DNA from: an uncultured bacterium | Lineage (GTDB): Bacteria > Bacillota > Clostridia > Christensenellales > Borkfalkiaceae | Reading direction: 5' to 3' | DNA length: 34,117 nt | Assembly (NCBI GenBank): GCA_949746255.1 | Contig: CATKAP010000223.1 | Span: 1-34,117, forward strand | Shown here: one piece after another, positions 16,504 to 29,659 of the stretch | How the letters are laid out: each line of letters begins with the position of its first letter | Position numbering within the stretch: position 1 is the stretch's first letter | Notes under the pieces: model-generated | What the model saw: only the letters and a program-made list of their open reading frames with translations | Told to the model about the DNA's origin: nothing | Databases searched by the model: none | Translations under genes and position numbers: made by a program

Positions 16504-16580
16504 CAAATATGTGAAACTTTTAAGGTGCAAAGAATTAAATTGTTAATTTTTTGTATGCTTTTCCGGCGAAGGAGAAAATT

Positions 16581-19500
16581 TTGGAAAAAAGTTGTTTTCT
16601 TGATTTTATACTCAAAACAGCGGATAAATTTTATTCCGTCAAAACAAAATGTCCCGTAACGGCGGACAGTTTTGTTGCGTTGTGTTTGGCTGTGATTGTG
16701 GACAGAGATAAAGTTTCTCTTCCCGAGGGGGCGGGCGTAATTTCCGAATTTATGTCGGTAAGGCGGCAGTTTATAAAAAAATCGGTTGTTTTCGATGAGG
16801 CTTACGGACAGTTGACGTCGGCTCTGGATAACGAAAACGTTGAGCCGGGCACCTTTTCGGTGGACAGTTTTATATTTAACAAACTCATGTACGAAGCGGA
16901 AAACGAAGCGGTAAAAAACGGAGAAACAACGCTTACGGCTTCGCGCGTGCTCGAAGCCGTATTGGCAAAACCCGGCCCGGCGTTCAAAAAATATTTCGAC
17001 GATTCTGAAGCGGTTAAAAAAGAAGAGTGCGCCGCTTGTTCCGACGCTGTGGAAAAGGTTGAAAGTCCTTATGAAGAATTCGACGAATTAACCGTGGAAA
17101 CAAACCGGGGTGCGGAGGAAGCTAAAGAGGAACGGCTCGAAGCGGAACGGAAGTCGGCAGGGCTTAAATCATTACTCGGTTCCGTGGGTAAAGTAAAAAA
17201 TATTCAAAAAACTCTGCTTGAAAGAATTTACGGTCAGGATAACGCCGTAACTACGTTTGTCGAAGGAGTGTTTCAAGCCGAACTCGTTTCATTGACAAAG
17301 TTAAAACGCAGTAAACCGAGAGCTACGTATTTGTTTGCCGGTCCTCCGGGCGTCGGTAAAACTTTTCTTGCGGAACAGGCTGCGGAAGTTTTGGACTTGC
17401 CGTATAAAAGATTCGATATGAGCGAGTATGCCGATAAAGAAGCGAATATAGAATTCTGTGGTTCGGATAAAGTTTATAAAAACGGAAAATCCGGTAACAT
17501 TACAAGTTTCGTTGCCGAACATCCGAAATGTATTTTACTTTTCGATGAAATAGAAAAAGCTCATCTTGTTGTAATTCACCTGTTTTTACAACTTTTGGAC
17601 GCAGGCAGATTGCGCGACAATTTTACCGACGAAGAAGTTTCGTTTAAGGACGCAATACTTATTTTTACTACCAACGCGGGCAGACAGCTTTACGAAGACC
17701 CGTCGGTTTCGGAACTTTCTAGCGTTTCCCGCAAAACGGTTTTACAGGCGCTCGGCAAAGATAAAAACCCCGTTACGGGCGCGCCGTTGTTTCCTCAAGC
17801 CATATGTTCGCGTTTTGCTTCTGGAAACGTGCTCATGTTCAATCATCTCGGGGCAAGTCATTTACTGAAAATAGTAGATAAAGAAATAAATAATCACGCT
17901 CGCGCTTTCGGTGAGAGTACGGGCATAAGTTTTGAAATAGATAAAAAGCTTTCCGGCGCTATAATGTTTTCGGAAGGCGGAAAGGCGGACGCGCGCGCGG
18001 TCAGCGGTAAAGCTTCCAATTTTCTTTACCGCGAGCTTTACGAACTGTTCCGTTTAATGGCTTCGGAGAAAAACAATTTCGATATTGAAAAGTTACGTAA
18101 AGTAAAAATAGGAGTGGAACTTCCGGACGACGAAAATATAAGAAAACTTTTCGCCGAAGCTTCCGTACCCGAATTGCTGTTGTTTGCCGAAGGTAAAACC
18201 GCCGAGGAATGTGTGAAAAAACTTTCCGGTTTTAAAGTGCGCGTCGCCGATACCGTCGAATCGGCGAAGGAAATTCTTTTCAATAACGATATTTCGGTAA
18301 TACTTTTGGATGTTCGTTGCAATTCGGAGGAGCGCGGCGGCGTGCTGAACATAGAGGACGTTCGTTCGGCCGGACGCGATTTTTTCGAATATGCGGGCGA
18401 ACGGGTGAATCTTCCGTTGTACATAATTCAAAACAAAGAAGGGGATATAAGTCCCGAGGAATTTACGTCGTTTGCCGGCGGCGGAGCTTCCGCTCTGCTT
18501 ACCGTTCGCGGAGGAAACTTTGCGCATGAGGTGCGCGAAAAGTGTAACAACGCTTATATGCAGTATAATCTTTTGGAACTTGCAAAGGCGAACAAGGTTG
18601 TTTCTTTCAAGACTTTGCAAAAAATTTCCAAGAACGGCGAAACGGCTAGTATAAATCTTTTCGATTTTAAACAGGCTACGGCGGTTGACGCGGAGGACAA
18701 TAAAAATATTCTCGGAGACGTTTCCCGTCCCGATAAACATTTTGCCGACGTCATAGGAGCCGAAGACGCAAAAGACGAACTTGCTTATTTTGTAAATTAT
18801 CTTAAAAATCCCAAAAAGTTTTTGCGCAAAGGGGTCAAACCGCCCAAGGGTATTCTGTTGTACGGGCCTCCGGGTACGGGAAAAACTTTGTTGGCAAAGG
18901 CTATGGCGGGCGAGTCGGACGTAACTTTTATAGCTACAGAAGGCAACAGATTTTTACAGAGATTCGTAGGCGACGGAGCGCAACTTGTGCACGATATTTT
19001 CCGCACTGCGAGAAAATACGCGCCTTCCATTCTTTTTATTGACGAAATAGACGTAATCGCAAAGGAACGCAAAGGCGAAGGCAAGCCGACTGCGGACGAT
19101 GTTTTAACGGCTTTACTTACTGAAATGGACGGTTTCAACGTGGATACGGATAAGCCCGTGTTTGTGCTTGCGGCAACCAATTTCGGTATAGAAACGGGAA
19201 CCGCCAATTCTTTGGACGGAGCCGTTTTGCGACGTTTTGACAGAAAAATATACGTTGACTTGCCTAACAAAGAAGAGCGCGAGCGTTTTATAAACGCTTT
19301 GACTGCGAAGAGCGCGGCTTTTACCGTAGACGGCAAACAAATAGGCAATATAGCTTTACGTTCTGCGGGAATGAGTCTTGCGGAACTCGAACAGGTATGC
19401 GAGCTTGCGTTGAGAAACGCTATTAAAACCAAGGATTGTTCCGTAGATAACGCGGCTTTGGAAGAAGCGTTTGAAAGTTATAACAGCGGCGAAGTAAAAA

Positions 19501-20054
19501 AATGGAATCCCGCAACTTTGGAGCGGACAGCGCGGCACGAAGCCGGTCACGCGCTCATGTGCTGGCTCGGAGGAGAAACCCCTAGTTACCTGACAATAGT
19601 GGCGCGCGGCGGTCACGGCGGATATATGCAGCACGGCGAAAGTGAGGATAAAGGGCTTTACACTAAAACGGAGCTGCTTTCCAGAATAAAAACCGCGCTC
19701 GGAGGCCGCGCTTCGGAAATTGTGTTTTACGGAGAGACCGACGGGGTTTCTACGGGCGCAAGCGGAGATTTGTTTACCGCTACGAAAGTCGCCGAACAAT
19801 TGTTGTGCAATTACGGTATGGACGGTGAAACAGGGCTTTCTTACGTATCGTTGAAAGAAGCGGCGGGTTCGCCTTACTACGGAGTTTTACGAGAAAGAGT
19901 TAACGGTATTTTACGAAACGAGCTTGAAAACGCAGTAAGGGAAATTTCGGAAAATAAATCAGCGGTAAACGCGTTGGTTGAAGTGTTGTTGGAACGCAAT
20001 CATATGCGCGGCGAAGAAATAGACGAAATTTTAAGCAAATTTATATCAAAATAA
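16581..20054 (+). CDS. Clp-like AAA+ / middle domain / FtsH-like AAA+ / peptidase M41 fusion protein
   Basis: Probable TTG start at 16581 with AAGGAG RBS (ORF track starts at TTG 16551). First AAA: GPPGVGKT, RFDMSEY, ILLFDEIEKAH, FTTNAG (ClpA/B D2-like). Second AAA: GPPGTGKT, ILFIDEID, AVLRRFDRKIYVDLP (FtsH-like). M41: HEAGHALMCWLGG and GASGDLFTATKVAEQL. Confidence 0.93.
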   Translation: MEKSCFLDFILKTADKFYSVKTKCPVTADSFVALCLAVIVDRDKVSLPEGAGVISEFMSVRRQFIKKSVVFDEAYGQLTSALDNENVEPGTFSVDSFIFNKLMYEAENEAVKNGETTLTASRVLEAVLAKPGPAFKKYFDDSEAVKKEECAACSDAVEKVESPYEEFDELTVETNRGAEEAKEERLEAERKSAGLKSLLGSVGKVKNIQKTLLERIYGQDNAVTTFVEGVFQAELVSLTKLKRSKPRATYLFAGPPGVGKTFLAEQAAEVLDLPYKRFDMSEYADKEANIEFCGSDKVYKNGKSGNITSFVAEHPKCILLFDEIEKAHLVVIHLFLQLLDAGRLRDNFTDEEVSFKDAILIFTTNAGRQLYEDPSVSELSSVSRKTVLQALGKDKNPVTGAPLFPQAICSRFASGNVLMFNHLGASHLLKIVDKEINNHARAFGESTGISFEIDKKLSGAIMFSEGGKADARAVSGKASNFLYRELYELFRLMASEKNNFDIEKLRKVKIGVELPDDENIRKLFAEASVPELLLFAEGKTAEECVKKLSGFKVRVADTVESAKEILFNNDISVILLDVRCNSEERGGVLNIEDVRSAGRDFFEYAGERVNLPLYIIQNKEGDISPEEFTSFAGGGASALLTVRGGNFAHEVREKCNNAYMQYNLLELAKANKVVSFKTLQKISKNGETASINLFDFKQATAVDAEDNKNILGDVSRPDKHFADVIGAEDAKDELAYFVNYLKNPKKFLRKGVKPPKGILLYGPPGTGKTLLAKAMAGESDVTFIATEGNRFLQRFVGDGAQLVHDIFRTARKYAPSILFIDEIDVIAKERKGEGKPTADDVLTALLTEMDGFNVDTDKPVFVLAATNFGIETGTANSLDGAVLRRFDRKIYVDLPNKEERERFINALTAKSAAFTVDGKQIGNIALRSAGMSLAELEQVCELALRNAIKTKDCSVDNAALEEAFESYNSGEVKKWNPATLERTARHEAGHALMCWLGGETPSYLTIVARGGHGGYMQHGESEDKGLYTKTELLSRIKTALGGRASEIVFYGETDGVSTGASGDLFTATKVAEQLLCNYGMDGETGLSYVSLKEAAGSPYYGVLRERVNGILRNELENAVREISENKSAVNALVEVLLERNHMRGEEIDEILSKFISK

Positions 20055-20125: not shown

Positions 20126-20614
20126 ATGTCTGAAGAACAAAAATTAATAAGAGCAAAAGGCGTTTATGATAAACTTGTAAAAATGTTGGAAACACGCGAT
20201 TGGAATTTTACTAAGCATGAAGAGGATTTGGTTATAAGCAGCGGTATTAAAACCGATGATTTTCCGGTTGAATTCGTTATGGTGGTAAACCCCAATAACG
20301 AAGTGGTGCAGTTCCTTTCCAAGTTGCCTTTCTCAATTGCCGAAGATAAGAGAATGGACGGCGCTATAGCGGTGTGCGTTGCGAACTACGGACTGTGCGA
20401 CGGTTCTTTCGATTATAATATTTCCAACGGCGACATAGTTTTCAGACTTACGACAAGTTACGCGGGCGATACCTTACTGAGCGACGATTTGTTCGAATAT
20501 ATGATTATGGTTGCGGCGGGAACGGTTGACGATTATAACGATAAATTCTATTTGCTTTCCAAGGGAATGATTTCGTTGCAACAGTTTATCGAACAGGAAC
20601 AGGGAGAAGACTAA
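20126..20614 (+). CDS. Small acidic protein, YbjN / secretion-chaperone-like fold
   Basis: 162 aa, strong RBS AGGAGGG; alternating helix/strand pattern similar to YbjN-type proteins (VYDKLVKMLETRDWNF...FVMVVNPNNEVVQFLSKLPF...AIAVCVANYGLCDGSFDYNISNGDIVFRL). Confidence 0.55.
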   Translation: MSEEQKLIRAKGVYDKLVKMLETRDWNFTKHEEDLVISSGIKTDDFPVEFVMVVNPNNEVVQFLSKLPFSIAEDKRMDGAIAVCVANYGLCDGSFDYNISNGDIVFRLTTSYAGDTLLSDDLFEYMIMVAAGTVDDYNDKFYLLSKGMISLQQFIEQEQGED

Positions 20615-20729: not shown

Positions 20730-21425
20730 TTGTTTACAATGAGTGGACAAGGTGTAGGAACTTATAACGTTGACATCGTTATGTGTATTGACGGAACGGG
20801 AAGCATGGCTCCCATAATCGATAAGGTTAAGGAGAACGCGCTTTCTTTCTATCAAAAATTTGCGGACGCTATGGACGAAAACGATAAGAGCGTAGAAGTG
20901 CTCCGCGTAAAGGTTATAGTATTCAGGGATTACGGTTGCGATTCCGAACCCATGAAAGAGTCGGAGTTCTTTACTCTTCCCGACCAAAACGAGCAATTCA
21001 GAGCGTTTGTTAACGGTATAACCGCTATGGGCGGCGGAGATATTCCCGAAAACGCATTGGAAGCTTTGGCGCTTGCGCTTAAATCCGATTGGACTACGGG
21101 CGGCTCCAAGCGCAGACACGCAGTGCTTATGTTCAGCGACGCGCCCGCGCTCGCTTTGGGCGAAAGAGCTTCGCAGTCGGGCTATCCTTCGGGCATGCCT
21201 AAGAATCTTGCGGAACTCGGCGCATGGTGGGAAGGTACCGACCAAACCATGGGCAGCACATATCAGGCAAAAGCGGGCAGACTTGTAGCTTTCGTTCCCA
21301 ATGCTGAACCCTGGACGGATTTGCAGACGTGGAACAGATATTGGCCGGCTTATTCGGCGGCTGGCACCGGTCTTTCCGAACTTGATATTCAATCTGCAAT
21401 CGACCTTCTCGTAGGTTCGTTCTAA
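20730..21425 (+). CDS. vWA-domain protein (TerY-like)
   Basis: 231 aa; YNVDIVMCIDGTGSMAPIIDKVKENALSF (variant MIDAS DGTGS), VKVIVFRDYG, GGGDIPENALEALALAL, AVLMFSDAPA. Confidence 0.88.
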   Translation: MFTMSGQGVGTYNVDIVMCIDGTGSMAPIIDKVKENALSFYQKFADAMDENDKSVEVLRVKVIVFRDYGCDSEPMKESEFFTLPDQNEQFRAFVNGITAMGGGDIPENALEALALALKSDWTTGGSKRRHAVLMFSDAPALALGERASQSGYPSGMPKNLAELGAWWEGTDQTMGSTYQAKAGRLVAFVPNAEPWTDLQTWNRYWPAYSAAGTGLSELDIQSAIDLLVGSF

Positions 21426-21514: not shown

Positions 21515-23644
21515 ATGGAAATGAAGTTGACCGTCTACCGTCAGGCGGTTAAAGAAAGGGACGGTTACAGGAATTACAGAGGAGAGGACGCGCGTCCTTA
21601 TACGGGGGAGAACGTGTTTTTCGTTGCCGACGGACTTGGCGGCGCTTCGGCGATAAGGCACACAAAATTCGTGCCCGAATTGTTTGATTCGGAAAAATTG
21701 CCGGATATTCTGTTTAAAGACGTTTTTGAAGATTATTCGGACGAGGAATTTTTAGATTACGTAAAAAATTCTTTTTTTGAATTTTTTGCAGTTAAAGACC
21801 ATTATGGCGACAATGTTTACAATATCAAAAAAAGCGGATATTTCGGTTCGCGCATAGCAACTTCGCTTTTATTGCACGAACTTTTATATAATAAAGATTT
21901 CGACGTTAAAAACGGCGGATTATTTGAAAAATACAACGGTTTAAATACTGATGAGGAAAAAAAGAATTTCGTTAAAGAGCTCGGCGAATATTTCGCGGAA
22001 TTTTTAAGCGAAAACATTAAAAAAGTTGCGGCAAACGCAAATCTCATATACGAAGGCGCGTATCAGGGGCTTGCTCTGCTTGCAACAACGCTTTGCGCCG
22101 CATTATACCGGGAAGGAAAGGACTGCGTAGAGGTGTTTTATCTGACTGCGGGAGATTCGCGCCCCTATATGTGGAATTCGGAAGGGCTTTATCAGGTAGT
22201 CGAGGACGAAGAGGGCGCCGACGGCGGTATGACCAACTACATACAGATTACGGAAGGTAAAACCTTTAAAATTAACTGCGAGTACAGAAAATTCAAAAAG
22301 CCGTGCGTGCTTTTCAGCGCGAGCGACGGATGTTTCGATTCCGCGGCTTTTCTGTCGCAAATGGCTTTCGAAAAGGTGATTTTGGATAATATAAAAGAAT
22401 CGCAGACTTTCGAAGCGGTTGCGGAGGGGCTTGAGAAATTTTTTGCGACTAACGGAACCCATGACGACAGCAGTACTATCGCCATGGTCGCTTTCGGTTA
22501 CGAAACATACGAAGATTTAAAAAAGGCGGCGGAAAAAAGGCTTGATAAAATTTCCGAAAAATTCCTTACGGAACTTCCAGAAGTTCTCGAAAAGGATTTT
22601 ACCGCGCAACTTAGCGCGGCGGAAGAAGGCAACGCCGATGAAGAAAAGGCGTTGAAGGCAAAACTCGACGGCGAGGAAAAAGTCAAAGATTTTTGCGCTG
22701 CGCGTATAAAAGAAGGCGCTTTTGCCGGATATAACGAAAAAATTCAGGCTATAGACGGTGAAAAGGAGAAACTTGAAGAGGCTACCGCGGATATAAAGAA
22801 ACAAGCCGAGCGTATTATCGCCGGAAATTTTCTGTTTTTCGAAAAATTTTACAGAATGCAATGTTTTGACGAGGGACTCTGCAAAAAAGCCGAAAACACC
22901 AAAAGGGAATACGTGGAAGCCGTTGAGCGTTATAGGGAAGAAATTAGGTTTATAAAAAATAAAATTGCCGAAGCGAACGAAAAGTTGCCTGAAAAATTGG
23001 AGGGTTTGGGCGCGACCGAACCGAAAGATTTTTCGTCGTTCGCGGAACTCGATATTACGTCTTTGGTAGACCTGCATAAAAAACTCGATTTTTTGGTTGC
23101 TTTGAAATCAGGTAAAAACGCCGTGCTGAAAAGTATCGTTTCTTTCCGCGAAGAATTCTATGCATTAAACGAAAAAGCGTTTACAAACAGAAAAAAAGCC
23201 GAGGACTGCCGTAAAGACGCGGAAGAAATTTTAAAACGGCTTATTAAAGATTTCGACGGAGCGGAAAACGGCGAAGAACTTTGCGTTCAGACGAATATTT
23301 TTCCGTGGGACGCGGAAAAACTGATTGCATGTCTTGCGGAAATCGGTAAAACGGTCGCGGAATGCGAAAAGCTCGAAAAGGAAGCTAAAGCAAAAGCGTT
23401 TGAGGAATCCGTTCCCGAATACTGGGCTGCAGAGTACGGCGCTGTTATAAACGAAATGTCCGAACGTATAGGGCATTGCGAGGATTTGGAACTTCCGGAA
23501 GAAATAACGGAAGCTTTGGTTAGCTATGCGATGAAGCGTAAGAGTCAATTGGAAGAATTGCGTAAAAAAGCGGACAAGCAGGCGGAAATTTTCGCGCTGT
23601 ACGATGAAACATATCTTAAACTTATAAGAGGTGAAAATCAATGA
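21515..23644 (+). CDS. PP2C-family protein phosphatase with long C-terminal coiled-coil region
   Basis: 709 aa; VFFVADGLGGASA, YLTAGDSRPYMWNSEGLYQV, LFSASDGCFD, THDDSSTIAMVAFG; then ~380 aa of Glu/Lys/Ala-rich helical sequence. Confidence 0.88.
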   Translation: MEMKLTVYRQAVKERDGYRNYRGEDARPYTGENVFFVADGLGGASAIRHTKFVPELFDSEKLPDILFKDVFEDYSDEEFLDYVKNSFFEFFAVKDHYGDNVYNIKKSGYFGSRIATSLLLHELLYNKDFDVKNGGLFEKYNGLNTDEEKKNFVKELGEYFAEFLSENIKKVAANANLIYEGAYQGLALLATTLCAALYREGKDCVEVFYLTAGDSRPYMWNSEGLYQVVEDEEGADGGMTNYIQITEGKTFKINCEYRKFKKPCVLFSASDGCFDSAAFLSQMAFEKVILDNIKESQTFEAVAEGLEKFFATNGTHDDSSTIAMVAFGYETYEDLKKAAEKRLDKISEKFLTELPEVLEKDFTAQLSAAEEGNADEEKALKAKLDGEEKVKDFCAARIKEGAFAGYNEKIQAIDGEKEKLEEATADIKKQAERIIAGNFLFFEKFYRMQCFDEGLCKKAENTKREYVEAVERYREEIRFIKNKIAEANEKLPEKLEGLGATEPKDFSSFAELDITSLVDLHKKLDFLVALKSGKNAVLKSIVSFREEFYALNEKAFTNRKKAEDCRKDAEEILKRLIKDFDGAENGEELCVQTNIFPWDAEKLIACLAEIGKTVAECEKLEKEAKAKAFEESVPEYWAAEYGAVINEMSERIGHCEDLELPEEITEALVSYAMKRKSQLEELRKKADKQAEIFALYDETYLKLIRGENQ

Positions 23645-25179
23645 ACGTGCACGGATACGAGCTTATTACCGAATGGAAAAACAGTCAGTGCGGTCAAACG
23701 GCTAAGGCGAAAAGAGGCGGTAAAGTATATTTTTTGAAAAAATATCAAACTCCCGTCAATCCCGTAAGAAACGGCGCTTTGGACGAACGTACTTTTCAGG
23801 CGAATAAAATAAAGTTCGAAAAATACGTTGCAAACCGCAGAAGGGTAAACGTAACGCTTAGAACGATAGCGGGGGCGGGCGGCAACATTATAATTCCTTC
23901 CGAAGAATTTGTGGAAGACAACCATTATATGGAAGCTTCCGAATTCATAGAAGGCGCCGTGCCCGACAAAGAAATAGAATTCGTGCTTTCAAGTCTGTCT
24001 TTGGACGTTAAAAAATTATTGCTGTTAACGGCTACGGGCGCGCTTATAAGCGTTCACGGCAAAGGCATTGTTCACAGCGATTTAAAGCTTAAGAACGTAC
24101 TTCTCGCCAAAAACAGTTCGGGTAACTACGTATCAAAGCTTATCGACTTTGACAGCAGTTATTTTCTCGACGACAAACCCGACGAAGTTGTGGGCGATAT
24201 AAATTATTATTCACCCGAACTCGGTACGTACGCGGACGTGGAAGACGACGAAGAAAGGCTTGCGCTTGCCGCAACTTTAACCGAAAAGTCGGATATATTT
24301 TCGCTCGGTCTTATATTCCATTATTATCTATCCGGCGAATTGCCCGAAGCAAAGAGCCTTACCGAAAGATTGCAGAAGAGGAAAGACAAGGGTAAGGTTA
24401 TTTATTGCTGGACCATACTCAACAACGATTGCGAGCTGAAACTGAGCCCTAAAATAACCAATTTGAAATATCTTTCGCTGATTGCCGACATGCTTGAAAA
24501 GGACCCTGCGAAACGCCCTTCGGCTACTCAGGTTTTACAGAGGCTTAAAGCTCCCGACGCCGACGGCGTTATAGAAGAACCCTGGCCCGAACACAATCTT
24601 ATCGTAGACAAAAATAAAATCAAAAATTCGGGTTATCCGGTATTCAGAAAAATTACTTCGCTCGGCAAAAAGAAATACGAACTTATTTCCAGGGAGGGCA
24701 AACGTTCCGAATTGACTGCGGAAGATTTGGTTTCCAAAGATTTTGCGCGGTTGGCGAGAGAGGAAAAATTCGATACCCCTTGGGAAGAACACAATATAAA
24801 TTTTAACGAATCCAAACTTAAACTTCGCGGTTTCGTATATTCCGATAAGGAAACTCAGTCCGGAGTCAAAGGTTACAGAATATACCGTTCGGATTCCACG
24901 AGTATGTTTTTCAGAGTTGAACAGCTTATAGCTATGGGTTACGCGGTAAAACGTTCCGAAGCCCCGCGCGCCGCGCACGTAGAAGCCGGTTTTTGCGAAC
25001 CTTGGCCGGAACACGGAATTGTTTTCGACTCTGATATGATTAAAATGAAAGGATATATCCGCGCCGAAAGAACTACTTTTTCGGGTATAAACGGTTACAA
25101 CTTTTTCAGGAGCGACGGTTCTAAGCAATTTATAAAAAAGGAAATGCTTATAGTTTTTAAAATGGCGCGCAAGGTGTAA
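23641..25179 (+). CDS. Ser/Thr protein kinase with three C-terminal repeats
   Basis: 512 aa; VYFLKKYQ (putative catalytic Lys), GIVHSDLKLKNVLLA, SKLIDFDSSYF, INYYSPELG, KSDIFSLGLIFHYYLSG. Start overlaps the PP2C stop (ATGA). C-terminal PW(P/E)EH... repeats. Confidence 0.9.
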   Translation: MNVHGYELITEWKNSQCGQTAKAKRGGKVYFLKKYQTPVNPVRNGALDERTFQANKIKFEKYVANRRRVNVTLRTIAGAGGNIIIPSEEFVEDNHYMEASEFIEGAVPDKEIEFVLSSLSLDVKKLLLLTATGALISVHGKGIVHSDLKLKNVLLAKNSSGNYVSKLIDFDSSYFLDDKPDEVVGDINYYSPELGTYADVEDDEERLALAATLTEKSDIFSLGLIFHYYLSGELPEAKSLTERLQKRKDKGKVIYCWTILNNDCELKLSPKITNLKYLSLIADMLEKDPAKRPSATQVLQRLKAPDADGVIEEPWPEHNLIVDKNKIKNSGYPVFRKITSLGKKKYELISREGKRSELTAEDLVSKDFARLAREEKFDTPWEEHNINFNESKLKLRGFVYSDKETQSGVKGYRIYRSDSTSMFFRVEQLIAMGYAVKRSEAPRAAHVEAGFCEPWPEHGIVFDSDMIKMKGYIRAERTTFSGINGYNFFRSDGSKQFIKKEMLIVFKMARKV

Positions 25180-25185
25180 ATTTTT

Positions 25186-25503
25186 ATGTACATATACAAG
25201 GGCACAAAAAGAAAAATTTTACGTTGGACGCACCGCGGATTTGTATTTGTAATCGCTGCGGCGGCGCTTGTGAGTTTTGCGGCTGTGGTATATATGATTT
25301 TCATAAATATTCAAGCGGGCGGACTTCAGGGCGTGTTTGACGGCGCCGTTTCGTGCTTTGACTTAATCGGAGTGAATTCCGGTAAAGCTTGCTCAACGGC
25401 GGAAGAACTGATTGTCCGGTTGGGCGAAAATATTGCTTCACACGCGGAAACCGCGTCTGCGGCTATAGCCGAATTTGTCGCGCGGATCGCGGCTAAGTTT
25501 TAA
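25186..25503 (+). CDS. Small single-TM membrane protein, hypothetical
   Basis: 105 aa; basic N-terminus then TM FVFVIAAAALVSFAAVVYMIFI; Ala-rich helical C-terminus. Confidence 0.65.
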   Translation: MYIYKGTKRKILRWTHRGFVFVIAAAALVSFAAVVYMIFINIQAGGLQGVFDGAVSCFDLIGVNSGKACSTAEELIVRLGENIASHAETASAAIAEFVARIAAKF

Positions 25504-25514
25504 GAGGTTTTATT

Positions 25515-25937
25515 ATGACGACGGTATTATACATATCCACTCTTGTACTTAATTTTGCCGGAGCGCTGTTCGGCGCGGTATATGTTGCGTTAAATTTATT
25601 TTTGGATTTGGACGAATACGGCGAGTTCGGAGATAAAAATAAAAACGCGTGTTTTGTATTGATAGCGGCGGCGCTGCTTTCGCTGGCGTTCGCTTTTTGC
25701 TCATGTCTTTTCGCTCCCGCCGATCAGGTGACGGAAGCTGTTGAAATTGCGGCGCAACTTTACGCGTTGATTGCTCTTACTTGGCTTGCGCTGATAATAA
25801 TCTGCGGTTGCGCAATGCTTTATCTGATAATTTCCAAATTGGGTTATTCTTCGGAAAAGGTTACGGGAGTTAGAACGGTGTTTTTTATTTCGCTCGGCGT
25901 GGCGCTCGTTTCCTTGGTGCTTACGTTTTTGCTTTAA
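25515..25937 (+). CDS. Small multi-pass (about 4 TM) membrane protein, hypothetical
   Basis: 140 aa with four hydrophobic segments; co-directional, 11-nt gap, RBS AGAGG. Confidence 0.7.
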   Translation: MTTVLYISTLVLNFAGALFGAVYVALNLFLDLDEYGEFGDKNKNACFVLIAAALLSLAFAFCSCLFAPADQVTEAVEIAAQLYALIALTWLALIIICGCAMLYLIISKLGYSSEKVTGVRTVFFISLGVALVSLVLTFLL

Positions 25938-26606: not shown

Positions 26607-27536
26607 ATGGCAAACGAAAGTAAATTCGTAAAGGCTTATTGCGAAAGAACGGGGCAGTTTTTCGCTCTTGAAATTAAAAAGTTTATGTTTTCGTGGAAAG
26701 TTGTAAACGTAACGCATTTAACTTCAACCGAAGCCAAACTTACCGCAACGGAAGTCGAGCAAAAGCAATTTGAAACGAATTCTAATTTATTGCCGTGTTT
26801 TAAGTGCGGTTCGCGCAAAGTGGGCGGATGTTCTTGTGCGAAGCGCGTAACCAACTGTTCGCGCGGCATGAAGTATAATTTTATGTGCACTTATTGCGAC
26901 AGTCTTAAAATAGATTATTCTCTTCCCAGCGCGGCGGACGTAGGCGCGAGAGCGGGAGAGAAAGTTGTTTTATCGCAGGGACAGGAAGTTAAAATTCGTT
27001 TTTCGGACGACAGACCGTTAACCGAAATAATTGTAGGCGTAGGCTGGGATCCGGCTACGGGTGCAAACAATATGGACGTGGATTCTTCCGTTATAGTGCT
27101 TTCTCCCGACGGCGACGACCGTGATTTGGTGTACTTCGGCGCGAAGGAGCACGCTTCGGGATGCGTAATCCACCACGGCGATAATCTTACAGGAGAAGGA
27201 AGCGGCCAGGGCGACGACGAAAATATAACCGTTCGGCTGAACAAAGTTCCTCAGAACAGAGACAGGCTTGTTTTCGTTCTCAATATTTACGATTGCGTAG
27301 ATCGCGGACAAACGCTCGGAAAAGTTAAAAATCTGTACATAAGACTTTACGACCCCGTATCGAAAAAAGCGCTTATAGAGTACCGCGTAACGGGAAATAT
27401 GCAAAACGATACGGCGTTGGTTATCGGTATGGCTTTCAGAAAAGCGGGCGGTTGGAGTTTTAAAGCGATAGGCAGAAGTTTGCGTTGCGACGACGTGCAG
27501 GATTTGACAGAAGTTTGTACGCGCTATCTCGATTGA
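26607..27536 (+). CDS. TerD-family protein with Cys-rich N-terminal domain
   Basis: 309 aa; TerD core VGVGWDPATGANNMDVDSSVIVL...SGCVIHHGDNLTGEGSGQGDDENITVRLNKVP; N-terminal CFKCGSRKVGGCSC...CSRGMKYNFMCTYC. Confidence 0.93.
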   Translation: MANESKFVKAYCERTGQFFALEIKKFMFSWKVVNVTHLTSTEAKLTATEVEQKQFETNSNLLPCFKCGSRKVGGCSCAKRVTNCSRGMKYNFMCTYCDSLKIDYSLPSAADVGARAGEKVVLSQGQEVKIRFSDDRPLTEIIVGVGWDPATGANNMDVDSSVIVLSPDGDDRDLVYFGAKEHASGCVIHHGDNLTGEGSGQGDDENITVRLNKVPQNRDRLVFVLNIYDCVDRGQTLGKVKNLYIRLYDPVSKKALIEYRVTGNMQNDTALVIGMAFRKAGGWSFKAIGRSLRCDDVQDLTEVCTRYLD

Positions 27537-27547
27537 GGAGTTTGTTG

Positions 27548-29659
27548 ATGTTTCGTAAAATAAAGGAATTTTTCAGCATACAGCTTTCCAAGCATCCGGG
27601 CAGAGTAGTCCTTACCGCGATATTGCTTTTAAACGTTGTTTTTTTGATTGTTTCGGCGGCCGTCATTGACGCGCTTGCTTTAAACGGTACTGAAGAAATG
27701 AGTTTTTGGCACGCTGCGTTTTATACCGTTACAATGATTTTGGACGCGGGCTGTATTTCGTTTGTCATAGAGGATATCGGCACTGCGGGAGTGGCTCTTG
27801 TAATAATATGTTTGATAATTATTATGGTCGGTATGGTTTTGTTTACCGGCGCTGTTATAGGTTATTTAACCAACTATATATCGGGATTTATAGATAAAGC
27901 CAACGTCGGTACGCATAAACTTGTGCTTTCCGGTCACGTTGTTGTATTAAACTGGAATACGCGCGCTTCGGAAATAGTTAACGATTTGCTTTATTGCGAC
28001 GCCCGTCAAAAGGTTGTAATACTTGTGAGCGCAGGAAAAGAGGTTATAGAAAAGGAATTGCAGGAACGCCTTTCAGATACTGTCGTGCAGGAAAATTCCG
28101 AAGTAAAGCGCGCTGCGGCAAAGTTGCCGGCAATACAAAGACCTTTATACAAATTCCGTCACAGGTTTACAAATAAACTTACAGTGTTGGTGCGTGAAGG
28201 CGATACTTTTTCTACAAAACAGTTAAACGATATTTCAATCAAACACGCAAAAACGATAATCATACTCGGCAACGACGTAAATAATACCGTATGTAAATAT
28301 GAGCATTCGTCTAAATCTGCGGAACGTGAACGCGGCAATCCTCAAAGTCTTAAAGCTTTGATGCAGGTTTCGGATATAACAGGTTCGGCTTCTTCCGACG
28401 ACAATCAGAAAATAGTTGTGGAAGTAGAGGACGAATGGACTTACGGGCTAGTTAGAAAAATTATAGAAAACAAGCGCGTTGAAGGCAAATGTAATATAAT
28501 ACCCGTTGGCGTAAATAAAATTCTGGGAACTCTTCTCGCTCAGTTTTCTCTTATGCCGGAGCTTAATTTGGCGTACAGAGAATTGTTTTCCAACAAGGGC
28601 GCGACTTTTTACTGTAAACCCTATAATGGAAAAGACGAAGCGAAATTTACCCGCGAATATTTTGAAAATCATATTTGTTCCCTGCCGCTTGCGTTGATGG
28701 AGCAGAACGGAAAAACCTGCGCGTTCTATTCGGCTAATTCCGAAAAAGACGATTTAAAACTTTGCGAAAGTTATAAAACCGATTTTAAAGTAAAAGTTAA
28801 TCATAATTACCGTTTCGAGCAGAAAAACGTAATTATTCTCGGTCATAATAGCAAAATAAAGGATATTATGGAGGGTTTCAATAATTTCCGAGGCGAATGG
28901 AACTATAAAGACGGTCGTGAAATTATGAACGTGCTCGTAATAGACGATAAAAAACATCTTGAAAAGATGAACTTTTACGCCGATTATTCTTACGTTAAGG
29001 AAGCTGTGGAGGCAGACGTCTACGATAAAGATATAATTTGCGAAACAATCGAGCGTTTTGTTGACGGAAATTCGGGTGATACCAGCGTGCTAATTCTGTC
29101 TGACGACGCCGTTTTGAACGAACAAATCGACGCGGGCGCAATTACGTACCTGATATATGTAAGAGATATTATCAATAAAAAGAAAGCCGCCGACCCGGAT
29201 TTCGACGAATATAAAATAGACGTGGTTGTGGAAATTTTAAATCCCAAGCATTACGATATTATTAAAAGTTACAGTGTAAACAACGTTGTTATAAGTAACC
29301 GCTACATAAGTAAAATGCTTACTCAGCTCGGTGAAAAGGACGAACTTTTCGGTTTTTACGACGATATTTTAACTTATGATTCGGCGGAGGCGGAAGAGCA
29401 GGAGAGTAAAGAAATTTATATAAAAGCGGCGGGAAGATTTTTCGAAGAAATACCCGAGCCTTGTACTGCGGCGGAACTTATACGCGCGGTATACTCGGCT
29501 TCAACGGCTTCCGAACTCCCCGAAAATTTAAAAAATCATACGATTGTTTTGGGATATGTAAGCAAAGACGGAAAGATGACTTTGTTTTCGGGCAACCAAA
29601 CGAAAACGGAAGTGGCTTTGAAAGAAACGGATAAATTGATAGTTTTCAGCAGTCATTAA
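27548..29659 (+). CDS. CASTOR/POLLUX-like ion channel (tandem RCK/NAD-binding-like domains)
   Basis: 703 aa from ATG 27548 with RBS GAGGAG; two TMs flanking pore-like region FWHAAFYTVTMILDAGC; then SGHVVVLNWNTRASEIVNDLL and a second NVIILGHNSKIKDIMEGFNNF nucleotide-binding-like domain. Confidence 0.8.
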   Translation: MFRKIKEFFSIQLSKHPGRVVLTAILLLNVVFLIVSAAVIDALALNGTEEMSFWHAAFYTVTMILDAGCISFVIEDIGTAGVALVIICLIIIMVGMVLFTGAVIGYLTNYISGFIDKANVGTHKLVLSGHVVVLNWNTRASEIVNDLLYCDARQKVVILVSAGKEVIEKELQERLSDTVVQENSEVKRAAAKLPAIQRPLYKFRHRFTNKLTVLVREGDTFSTKQLNDISIKHAKTIIILGNDVNNTVCKYEHSSKSAERERGNPQSLKALMQVSDITGSASSDDNQKIVVEVEDEWTYGLVRKIIENKRVEGKCNIIPVGVNKILGTLLAQFSLMPELNLAYRELFSNKGATFYCKPYNGKDEAKFTREYFENHICSLPLALMEQNGKTCAFYSANSEKDDLKLCESYKTDFKVKVNHNYRFEQKNVIILGHNSKIKDIMEGFNNFRGEWNYKDGREIMNVLVIDDKKHLEKMNFYADYSYVKEAVEADVYDKDIICETIERFVDGNSGDTSVLILSDDAVLNEQIDAGAITYLIYVRDIINKKKAADPDFDEYKIDVVVEILNPKHYDIIKSYSVNNVVISNRYISKMLTQLGEKDELFGFYDDILTYDSAEAEEQESKEIYIKAAGRFFEEIPEPCTAAELIRAVYSASTASELPENLKNHTIVLGYVSKDGKMTLFSGNQTKTEVALKETDKLIVFSSH

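What the first reader, a model, noticed from the sequence alone, without database searches (positions are those of the whole stretch)
24580..25179. Three tandem ~65-aa C-terminal repeats on the kinase (PW-P/E-EH motif)
Seen: repeat units starting at 24580, 24778 and 25000: PWPEHNLIVDKNKIKNSGYPVFRKI...KKYELISREGK, PWEEHNINFNESKLKLRGFVYSDKETQSGVKGYRIYRSDS, PWPEHGIVFDSDMIKMKGYIRAERTTFSGINGYNFFRSDG. I do not recognise this as a named domain. Inference: a ligand- or protein-binding repeat giving the kinase its input.
Basis: partly seen in the sequence, partly recalled or inferred. Interest (0 to 1): 0.72.

Follow-up and report, generated by a model that had tools for sequence, protein, structure and literature searches.

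The report
New repeat domain on TerY-P kinases
A gut-bacterial protein kinase carries three copies of a small, previously unnamed protein domain that also turns up on neighbouring proteins in the same stress- or defence-type signalling operon, so it probably acts as the docking or sensing part of that switch.

Summary
The kinase at 23641-25179 ends in three diverged tandem units of about 60 aa, at the stated starts. A profile built without the window finds each unit at E 5e-16 or better. The unit matches no Pfam, NCBIfam, PHROGs or PDB family convincingly. AlphaFold2 gives it a compact beta-alpha-beta-beta-beta-alpha-beta fold (pLDDT 96.5) with no significant Foldseek relative in the PDB or viral library.

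The units are conserved: 58 kinases carry one to three of them, mostly from Clostridia and including Ruminococcus flavefaciens isolates. Each copy keeps its position in the array.

The context names the system. The genes TerY-like vWA, PP2C phosphatase and kinase sit together, followed by zinc-ribbon and TerD proteins. This is a TerY-P phosphorylation triad, whose kinases are reported to end in a zinc ribbon or OB-fold. Here the new repeat occupies that end.

The same unit recurs on small downstream proteins, half of them with a zinc ribbon (8 loci), and on one PP2C. A docking or scaffold module shared by operon members is therefore the likeliest role; ligand sensing is the main rival. The domain is new; the system is a variant of a known kind. 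Function was not tested.

The parts
24571..24750 (+). repeat unit 1 (kinase residues 311-370)
   Evidence: leave-window-out profile, 56.7 bits, i-E 4.6e-16; folded in the AF2 model; nearest neighbours are unit 1 of other kinases in 40/40
24769..24954 (+). repeat unit 2 (residues 377-438)
   Evidence: 84.2 bits, i-E 1.1e-24; same-position neighbours 38/40
24991..25173 (+). repeat unit 3 (residues 451-511), at the C-terminus
   Evidence: 90.5 bits, i-E 1.2e-26; AF2 of the single unit, pLDDT 96.5; same-position neighbours 36/40
24958..24981 (+). disordered linker between units 2 and 3 (residues 440-447); long Ala/Pro-rich linker here in R. flavefaciens relatives
   Evidence: pLDDT below 50 at 440-447; sequences
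23641..25179 (+). Ser/Thr-type protein kinase gene, kinase domain about residues 1-305
   Evidence: Pfam PF00069 E 1.4e-22; K33, H145, D147, K149, N152, D169 conserved in all aligned relatives that have letters there
20730..21425 (+). TerY-like von Willebrand A protein
   Evidence: Pfam VWA_4 E 1e-10; MIDAS-like DxTxS and a downstream D at least 90% conserved in 69 homologues
21515..23644 (+). PP2C-like phosphatase with a long C-terminal extension
   Evidence: NCBIfam Stp1 PP2C, weak, E 6.9e-7; ED, DGxGG, GDSR, SDG and DD motif residues conserved in 55 homologues
25186..25503 (+). small protein with a hydrophobic, probably membrane segment
   Evidence: ORF and sequence reading; Pfam DUF7248 only below cut-off
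25515..25937 (+). probable membrane protein of 140 aa, homologues in related operons
   Evidence: sequence reading; homologues in L056, L067, L069
25950..26582 (+). zinc-ribbon + BspA-type LRR + C-terminal hydrophobic segment
   Evidence: LRR_5 E 7e-15; RanBP zinc ribbon weak, E 0.053; Cys pairs seen in the sequence
26607..27536 (+). TerD-domain protein with a Cys-rich N-terminal region
   Evidence: Pfam TerD E 5.3e-46

Best explanation
The units are a new, independently folding domain of about 60 aa on the kinase of a TerY-P-type phosphorylation triad (vWA + PP2C + kinase). Shown: three copies here, conserved in relatives with fixed positions, on a kinase whose catalytic residues are intact; the same domain at the C-terminus of small downstream proteins (half with a zinc ribbon) and at the N-terminus of one PP2C. 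Inferred: the units are docking modules. They bring kinase, phosphatase and adaptors onto a common scaffold or ligand, so that phosphorylation is switched by what the array holds. The array takes the place of the C-terminal zinc ribbon or OB-fold reported for other TerY-P kinases.
For: Unit profile across relatives; confident fold; triad context: PP2C in 47 and vWA in 40 of 52 unit-bearing kinase loci scored, some of them truncated contigs; unit on eight small downstream proteins and a PP2C in L087; the downstream-protein units are nearest to kinase unit 3 in 7 of 8 and the PP2C units nearest to kinase unit 2, as expected if the module is swapped within the operon; fixed unit positions argue for a distinct role for each copy; units diverge faster than the kinase domain, as sensor or adaptor regions often do; unit-less TerY-P kinases are mostly about 320-380 aa and are often followed by a separate zinc-ribbon gene; TerY-P definition and the C-terminal ZnR/OB-fold from PMC11090510.
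Against: No binding partner, ligand or complex model was obtained. Most operons carry the unit only on the kinase, so a homotypic link is not general. The strongest conserved positions (W, G, Y, DG) look structural rather than like a binding site. No coordinates were available to map surface conservation.
Confidence: 0.5

Rival explanations
1. The units are sensors that bind a small molecule or nucleic acid (for example one produced during stress or phage infection) and allosterically switch the kinase, as proposed for the OB-fold or zinc ribbon on other TerY-P kinases.
For: Same position as the OB-fold/ZnR, which PMC11090510 reads as possibly nucleic-acid binding. Three specialised copies and faster divergence than the kinase domain. 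Top but non-significant Foldseek hits include Tudor-like RNA-polymerase-binding domains of Mfd, CarD and UvrD.
Against: Mean net charge of the units is only about 0 to +3, not strongly basic. No Foldseek hit at E<=1e-3. A ligand sensor does not by itself explain the same unit on the phosphatase and the small adaptors.
Confidence: 0.27
2. The units bind the kinase domain of the same or another molecule and hold it inactive until displaced or phosphorylated (autoinhibition).
For: Fused in cis and C-terminal, a common arrangement for autoinhibitory regions.
Against: Position of the units relative to the kinase was not resolved (pTM 0.76; no PAE available), there is a flexible linker, and the unit also occurs on proteins without a kinase domain.
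Confidence: 0.13
3. The units are a diverged member of a known fold, such as a winged-helix wing or a Tudor/SH3-like barrel, that the searches could not join.
For: Weak local matches of single members to MarR-type regulators (NCBIfam BilQ 4.4e-4, HpaR 6.1e-3; Pfam HTH_34 8.4e-4); weak RID/Tudor Foldseek hits.
Against: The winged-helix hits come from one or two members out of 103 and are of the size expected from the number of tests. The AF2 unit has only two six-residue helices and no tri-helical core. Tudor hits have TM below 0.4.
Confidence: 0.1

Closest known systems
TerY-P phosphorylation triad (vWA + PP2C + STK; Anantharaman et al. 2012 as cited in PMC11090510; anti-phage in PMC7699616 and PMC10889362)
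   Same: Same three enzymes in the same order in most relatives, intact MIDAS-like, PP2C and kinase motifs, zinc-ribbon and TerD proteins nearby
   Different: The kinase ends in one to three copies of a new domain instead of a zinc ribbon or OB-fold; zinc ribbons are on separate genes; a branch (L079-L088, L105) has the order kinase then PP2C
Unit-less TerY-P loci found in the same scan (Herpetosiphon plasmid, cyanobacteria, other Ruminococcus; L094-L106)
   Same: vWA upstream, PP2C in most, related kinase domain, often a zinc-ribbon gene next
   Different: Most kinases are about 320-380 aa and have no units
PASTA-type receptor kinases (PknB/Stk1)
   Same: Bacterial Ser/Thr kinase with a C-terminal tandem array of about 60-70 aa small domains
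   Different: No membrane segment between kinase and array, no PASTA match, different conserved motif; resemblance in layout only
Mfd/CarD/UvrD Tudor-like RNA-polymerase-interacting domains
   Same: Highest-ranked Foldseek hits, small beta-rich domain
   Different: E 0.13 or worse, TM below 0.4; no sequence relation

Membership tests
TerY-P triad | TerY-like vWA protein with metal-binding MIDAS next to the kinase | tested here: met
   Window 20730-21425, VWA_4 E 1e-10; DxTxS and downstream D conserved
TerY-P triad | PP2C-like phosphatase adjacent | tested here: met
   Window 21515-23644; weak NCBIfam PP2C hit but conserved metal-site motifs; adjacent in 47/52 loci
TerY-P triad | Ser/Thr kinase with intact catalytic residues | tested here: met
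   PF00069 E 1.4e-22; K, HxDxKxxN and DFD conserved; activity not assayed
TerY-P triad | Kinase fused C-terminally to a zinc ribbon or OB-fold | tested here: not met
   C-terminus consists of three new units; so this is a TerY-P-like variant, not the canonical form. No such fusion was apparent in the unit-less relatives inspected either
TerY-P triad | Anti-phage or tellurite/stress function | not testable with these tools
   Needs an experiment; published for other TerY-P systems
PADLOC defence families | Specific match of operon proteins to a defence model | tested here: not met
   Only generic kinase-domain matches (mad6, PD-T4-6, MkoA), none for vWA, PP2C or TerD
Any named domain (Pfam, NCBIfam, PHROGs) | Unit matches a family model above its cut-off | tested here: not met
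   No convincing family in 103 units scanned; best hits scattered and weak
Winged-helix (MarR/HTH_34) | Tri-helical core plus wing | tested here: not met
   AF2 unit has two six-residue helices only
PASTA repeats | PASTA profile match and transmembrane segment | tested here: not met
   No PASTA match to units; NCBIfam PknB_PASTA hit covers the kinase domain only

The most novel reading that the evidence does not exclude
The unit is a new fold family that works as a shared address tag: the TerY-P kinase, its opposing phosphatase and small adaptors carry it so that all dock on one scaffold or one stress/infection signal, giving a bacterial phospho-switch with exchangeable docking modules.
Probability: 0.3. 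Interest if true: 0.65.

Novelty: new variant of a known kind. Interest (0 to 1): 0.46.

Why it matters
TerY-P triads protect some bacteria from phages, but what their kinases sense or phosphorylate is, as far as I know, not established. A compact domain that folds confidently, exists in culturable Ruminococcus flavefaciens strains, and recurs on kinase, phosphatase and adaptor proteins gives a concrete handle for finding the input and partners of these switches. It is also a candidate for a new Pfam family.

Tried and rejected
A summed profile hit to the multi-repeat protein VopV in the PDB (E 4.8e-7) was rejected: no single stretch passed and the isolated repeat scored E 1.2. MarR/HTH_34 winged-helix similarity was rejected: one or two members only, no tri-helical core. 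DUF7141 (11 members, best E 0.0083, partial) was rejected as below cut-off. Borderline unit hits outside the kinases (L117, L118, L142, L143) cover only part of the unit, mainly its beta-hairpin, and are treated as chance or convergence. No units were found in the phage collection, and the plasmid matches lie in the kinase domain, none covering the whole array. The viral-contig scan found no relative, and its alignment version could not run. Prevalence in the R. flavefaciens family could not be measured. A strong basic-charge case for nucleic-acid binding was not found. The Anantharaman 2012 paper is not held, so its content is cited through PMC11090510.

Full report
OBSERVATION. The kinase ORF at 23641-25179 (+) encodes 512 aa. 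Pfam finds a protein kinase domain at residues 90-300 (E 1.4e-22) and nothing after it. A profile made only from other genomes finds each at i-E 4.6e-16, 1.1e-24 and 1.2e-26. The best score among 2,000 shuffled C-termini is 9.6 bits in total, against 57-91 bits per unit. The units also match each other far above shuffles. The repeats are therefore real; they are diverged from one another (about 16-23 identities in 58-61 columns).

WHAT THE UNIT IS. Consensus: E-P-W-[PE]-E-H-x-I-x-F-D-x-x-x-[IL]-K-x-x-G-[FY]-V-x-x-[ER]-[RKQ]-x-x-x-x-G-x-K-G-Y-x-[FL]-x-x-x-D-G-x-x-x-F-x-x-x-E-x-L-x-x-[GK]-[YL]-A. Column 34 (Tyr) is invariant in 165 units, Trp3 is present in 94%, Gly19 in 85%, His6 in 82%. AlphaFold2 on unit 3 with 103 aligned units gives pLDDT 96.5 and the order beta-alpha-beta-beta-beta-alpha-beta. 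The full kinase model (50 relatives) has pLDDT 93.1, with all three units folded alike and a disordered linker at 440-447. Foldseek finds no relative at E<=1e-3 among PDB or viral structures. No Pfam, NCBIfam, PHROGs or PDB sequence family matches convincingly. AlphaFold DB of cellular proteins was not available, so 'no known fold relative' applies only to the libraries searched.

DISTRIBUTION. A scan of GTDB species genomes brought 80 kinase loci. Counting the window, 58 kinases carry units: 40 with three, 17 with two (a few on truncated contigs), one with one. They come from Clostridia, including the R. flavefaciens isolates XPD3002, YRD2003 and MC2020, plus one MAG labelled Thermoguttaceae (L069), which may be transfer or mis-binning. 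In whole-genome samples the unit occurs in 24 of 396 genomes of the window's order (a few of these are borderline partial hits) and 2 of 391 of its class. In the phylum sample only the window's genome had a convincing match; two others were borderline. Few members of the window's genus have it, and two divergent versions occur within that genus. It is therefore patchy and accessory. No copy was found in the phage collection or the viral-contig scan.

COPY STRUCTURE. Each unit's nearest relative in other genomes is the unit at the same position: 40/40, 38/40 and 36/40 for units 1, 2 and 3. The array thus arose before these lineages split and has not been recently expanded. Units diverge faster than the kinase domain (for example 53-73% against 84% identity in one bin). 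Mean net charge is close to neutral.

OPERON. Upstream of the kinase lie a TerY-like vWA gene (20730-21425, VWA_4 E 1e-10; MIDAS-type residues conserved) and a PP2C-like phosphatase (21515-23644; metal-site motifs conserved; library matches weak). Downstream are two probable membrane proteins, a zinc-ribbon/LRR protein and a TerD protein with a Cys-rich N-terminus. Among 52 unit-bearing kinase loci scored, 47 have PP2C, 40 vWA and 35 a zinc-ribbon protein nearby; truncated contigs lower these counts. PMC11090510 defines the TerY-P triad as vWA + PP2C + kinase with a C-terminal zinc ribbon, with OB-fold versions acting as stand-alone anti-phage systems. Anti-phage activity of TerY-P is also described in PMC7699616 and PMC10889362. 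The window operon is a TerY-P-like system in which the new units hold the C-terminal position. Distant unit-less triads in the same scan have kinases mostly of about 320-380 aa, often followed by a separate zinc-ribbon gene.

SAME UNIT ON OTHER PROTEINS. In eight loci a small protein directly downstream of the kinase ends in one unit; four of the eight start with a zinc ribbon (L041, L056, L064, L067; Pfam RanBP zinc ribbon E 1.7e-6 for L056). In L087 the PP2C carries two units in its N-terminal region. Units on the small proteins are closest to kinase unit 3 (7 of 8), and the PP2C units to kinase unit 2. The module appears to have moved between members of the operon.

MECHANISM. Shown: the domain, its conservation, its reuse, and intact catalytic motifs in kinase and phosphatase. 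Inferred: the units recruit the kinase, and in some species the phosphatase and adaptor, to a common partner or ligand, so that the vWA/PP2C/kinase switch acts on the right target. Sharing by opposing enzymes and an adaptor favours docking over a private allosteric sensor, but sensing cannot be excluded, nor autoinhibition. The substrate and the stimulus are unknown.

NOVELTY. The domain is unnamed in every library searched; the host system is known. Hence 'new variant of a known kind'.

Noticed in passing
window 16551-20054 and 20126-20614: A double-AAA protein with a C-terminal M41 (FtsH-type) peptidase and a YbjN-like protein lie upstream; the same pair precedes the vWA-PP2C-kinase genes in L041, so they may belong to the operon.
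   Followed up: partly
L079-L088, L105: A branch of the kinases has the gene order vWA, kinase, PP2C instead of vWA, PP2C, kinase.
   Followed up: partly
L069: A unit-bearing kinase with vWA and PP2C in a MAG labelled Thermoguttaceae (Planctomycetota); transfer or mis-binning.
   Followed up: no
L047, L049, L053, L057: The small unit-bearing downstream protein lacks the zinc ribbon and instead starts with a short FSDWEAI/YSDWEAV-type motif that resembles a segment of the zinc-ribbon versions.
   Followed up: partly
L063 9623-10519, L041 11096-12049: Zinc-ribbon proteins fused to Sel1 repeats follow the kinase operon; zinc-ribbon adaptors with LRR, Sel1, membrane or unit tails look interchangeable.
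   Followed up: partly
L069 10723-11664, L056 14121-15158, L059 9474-10580: The Cys-rich N-terminal region of the window's TerD protein is joined to other domains in relatives (a vWA-like domain in L069, unassigned ones in L056 and L059).
   Followed up: partly
window 27485-29659: 724-aa protein right after TerD with no family match.
   Followed up: no
L082 11502-12491: A putative metallopeptidase follows the PP2C; weak Pfam matches below cut-off only.
   Followed up: no
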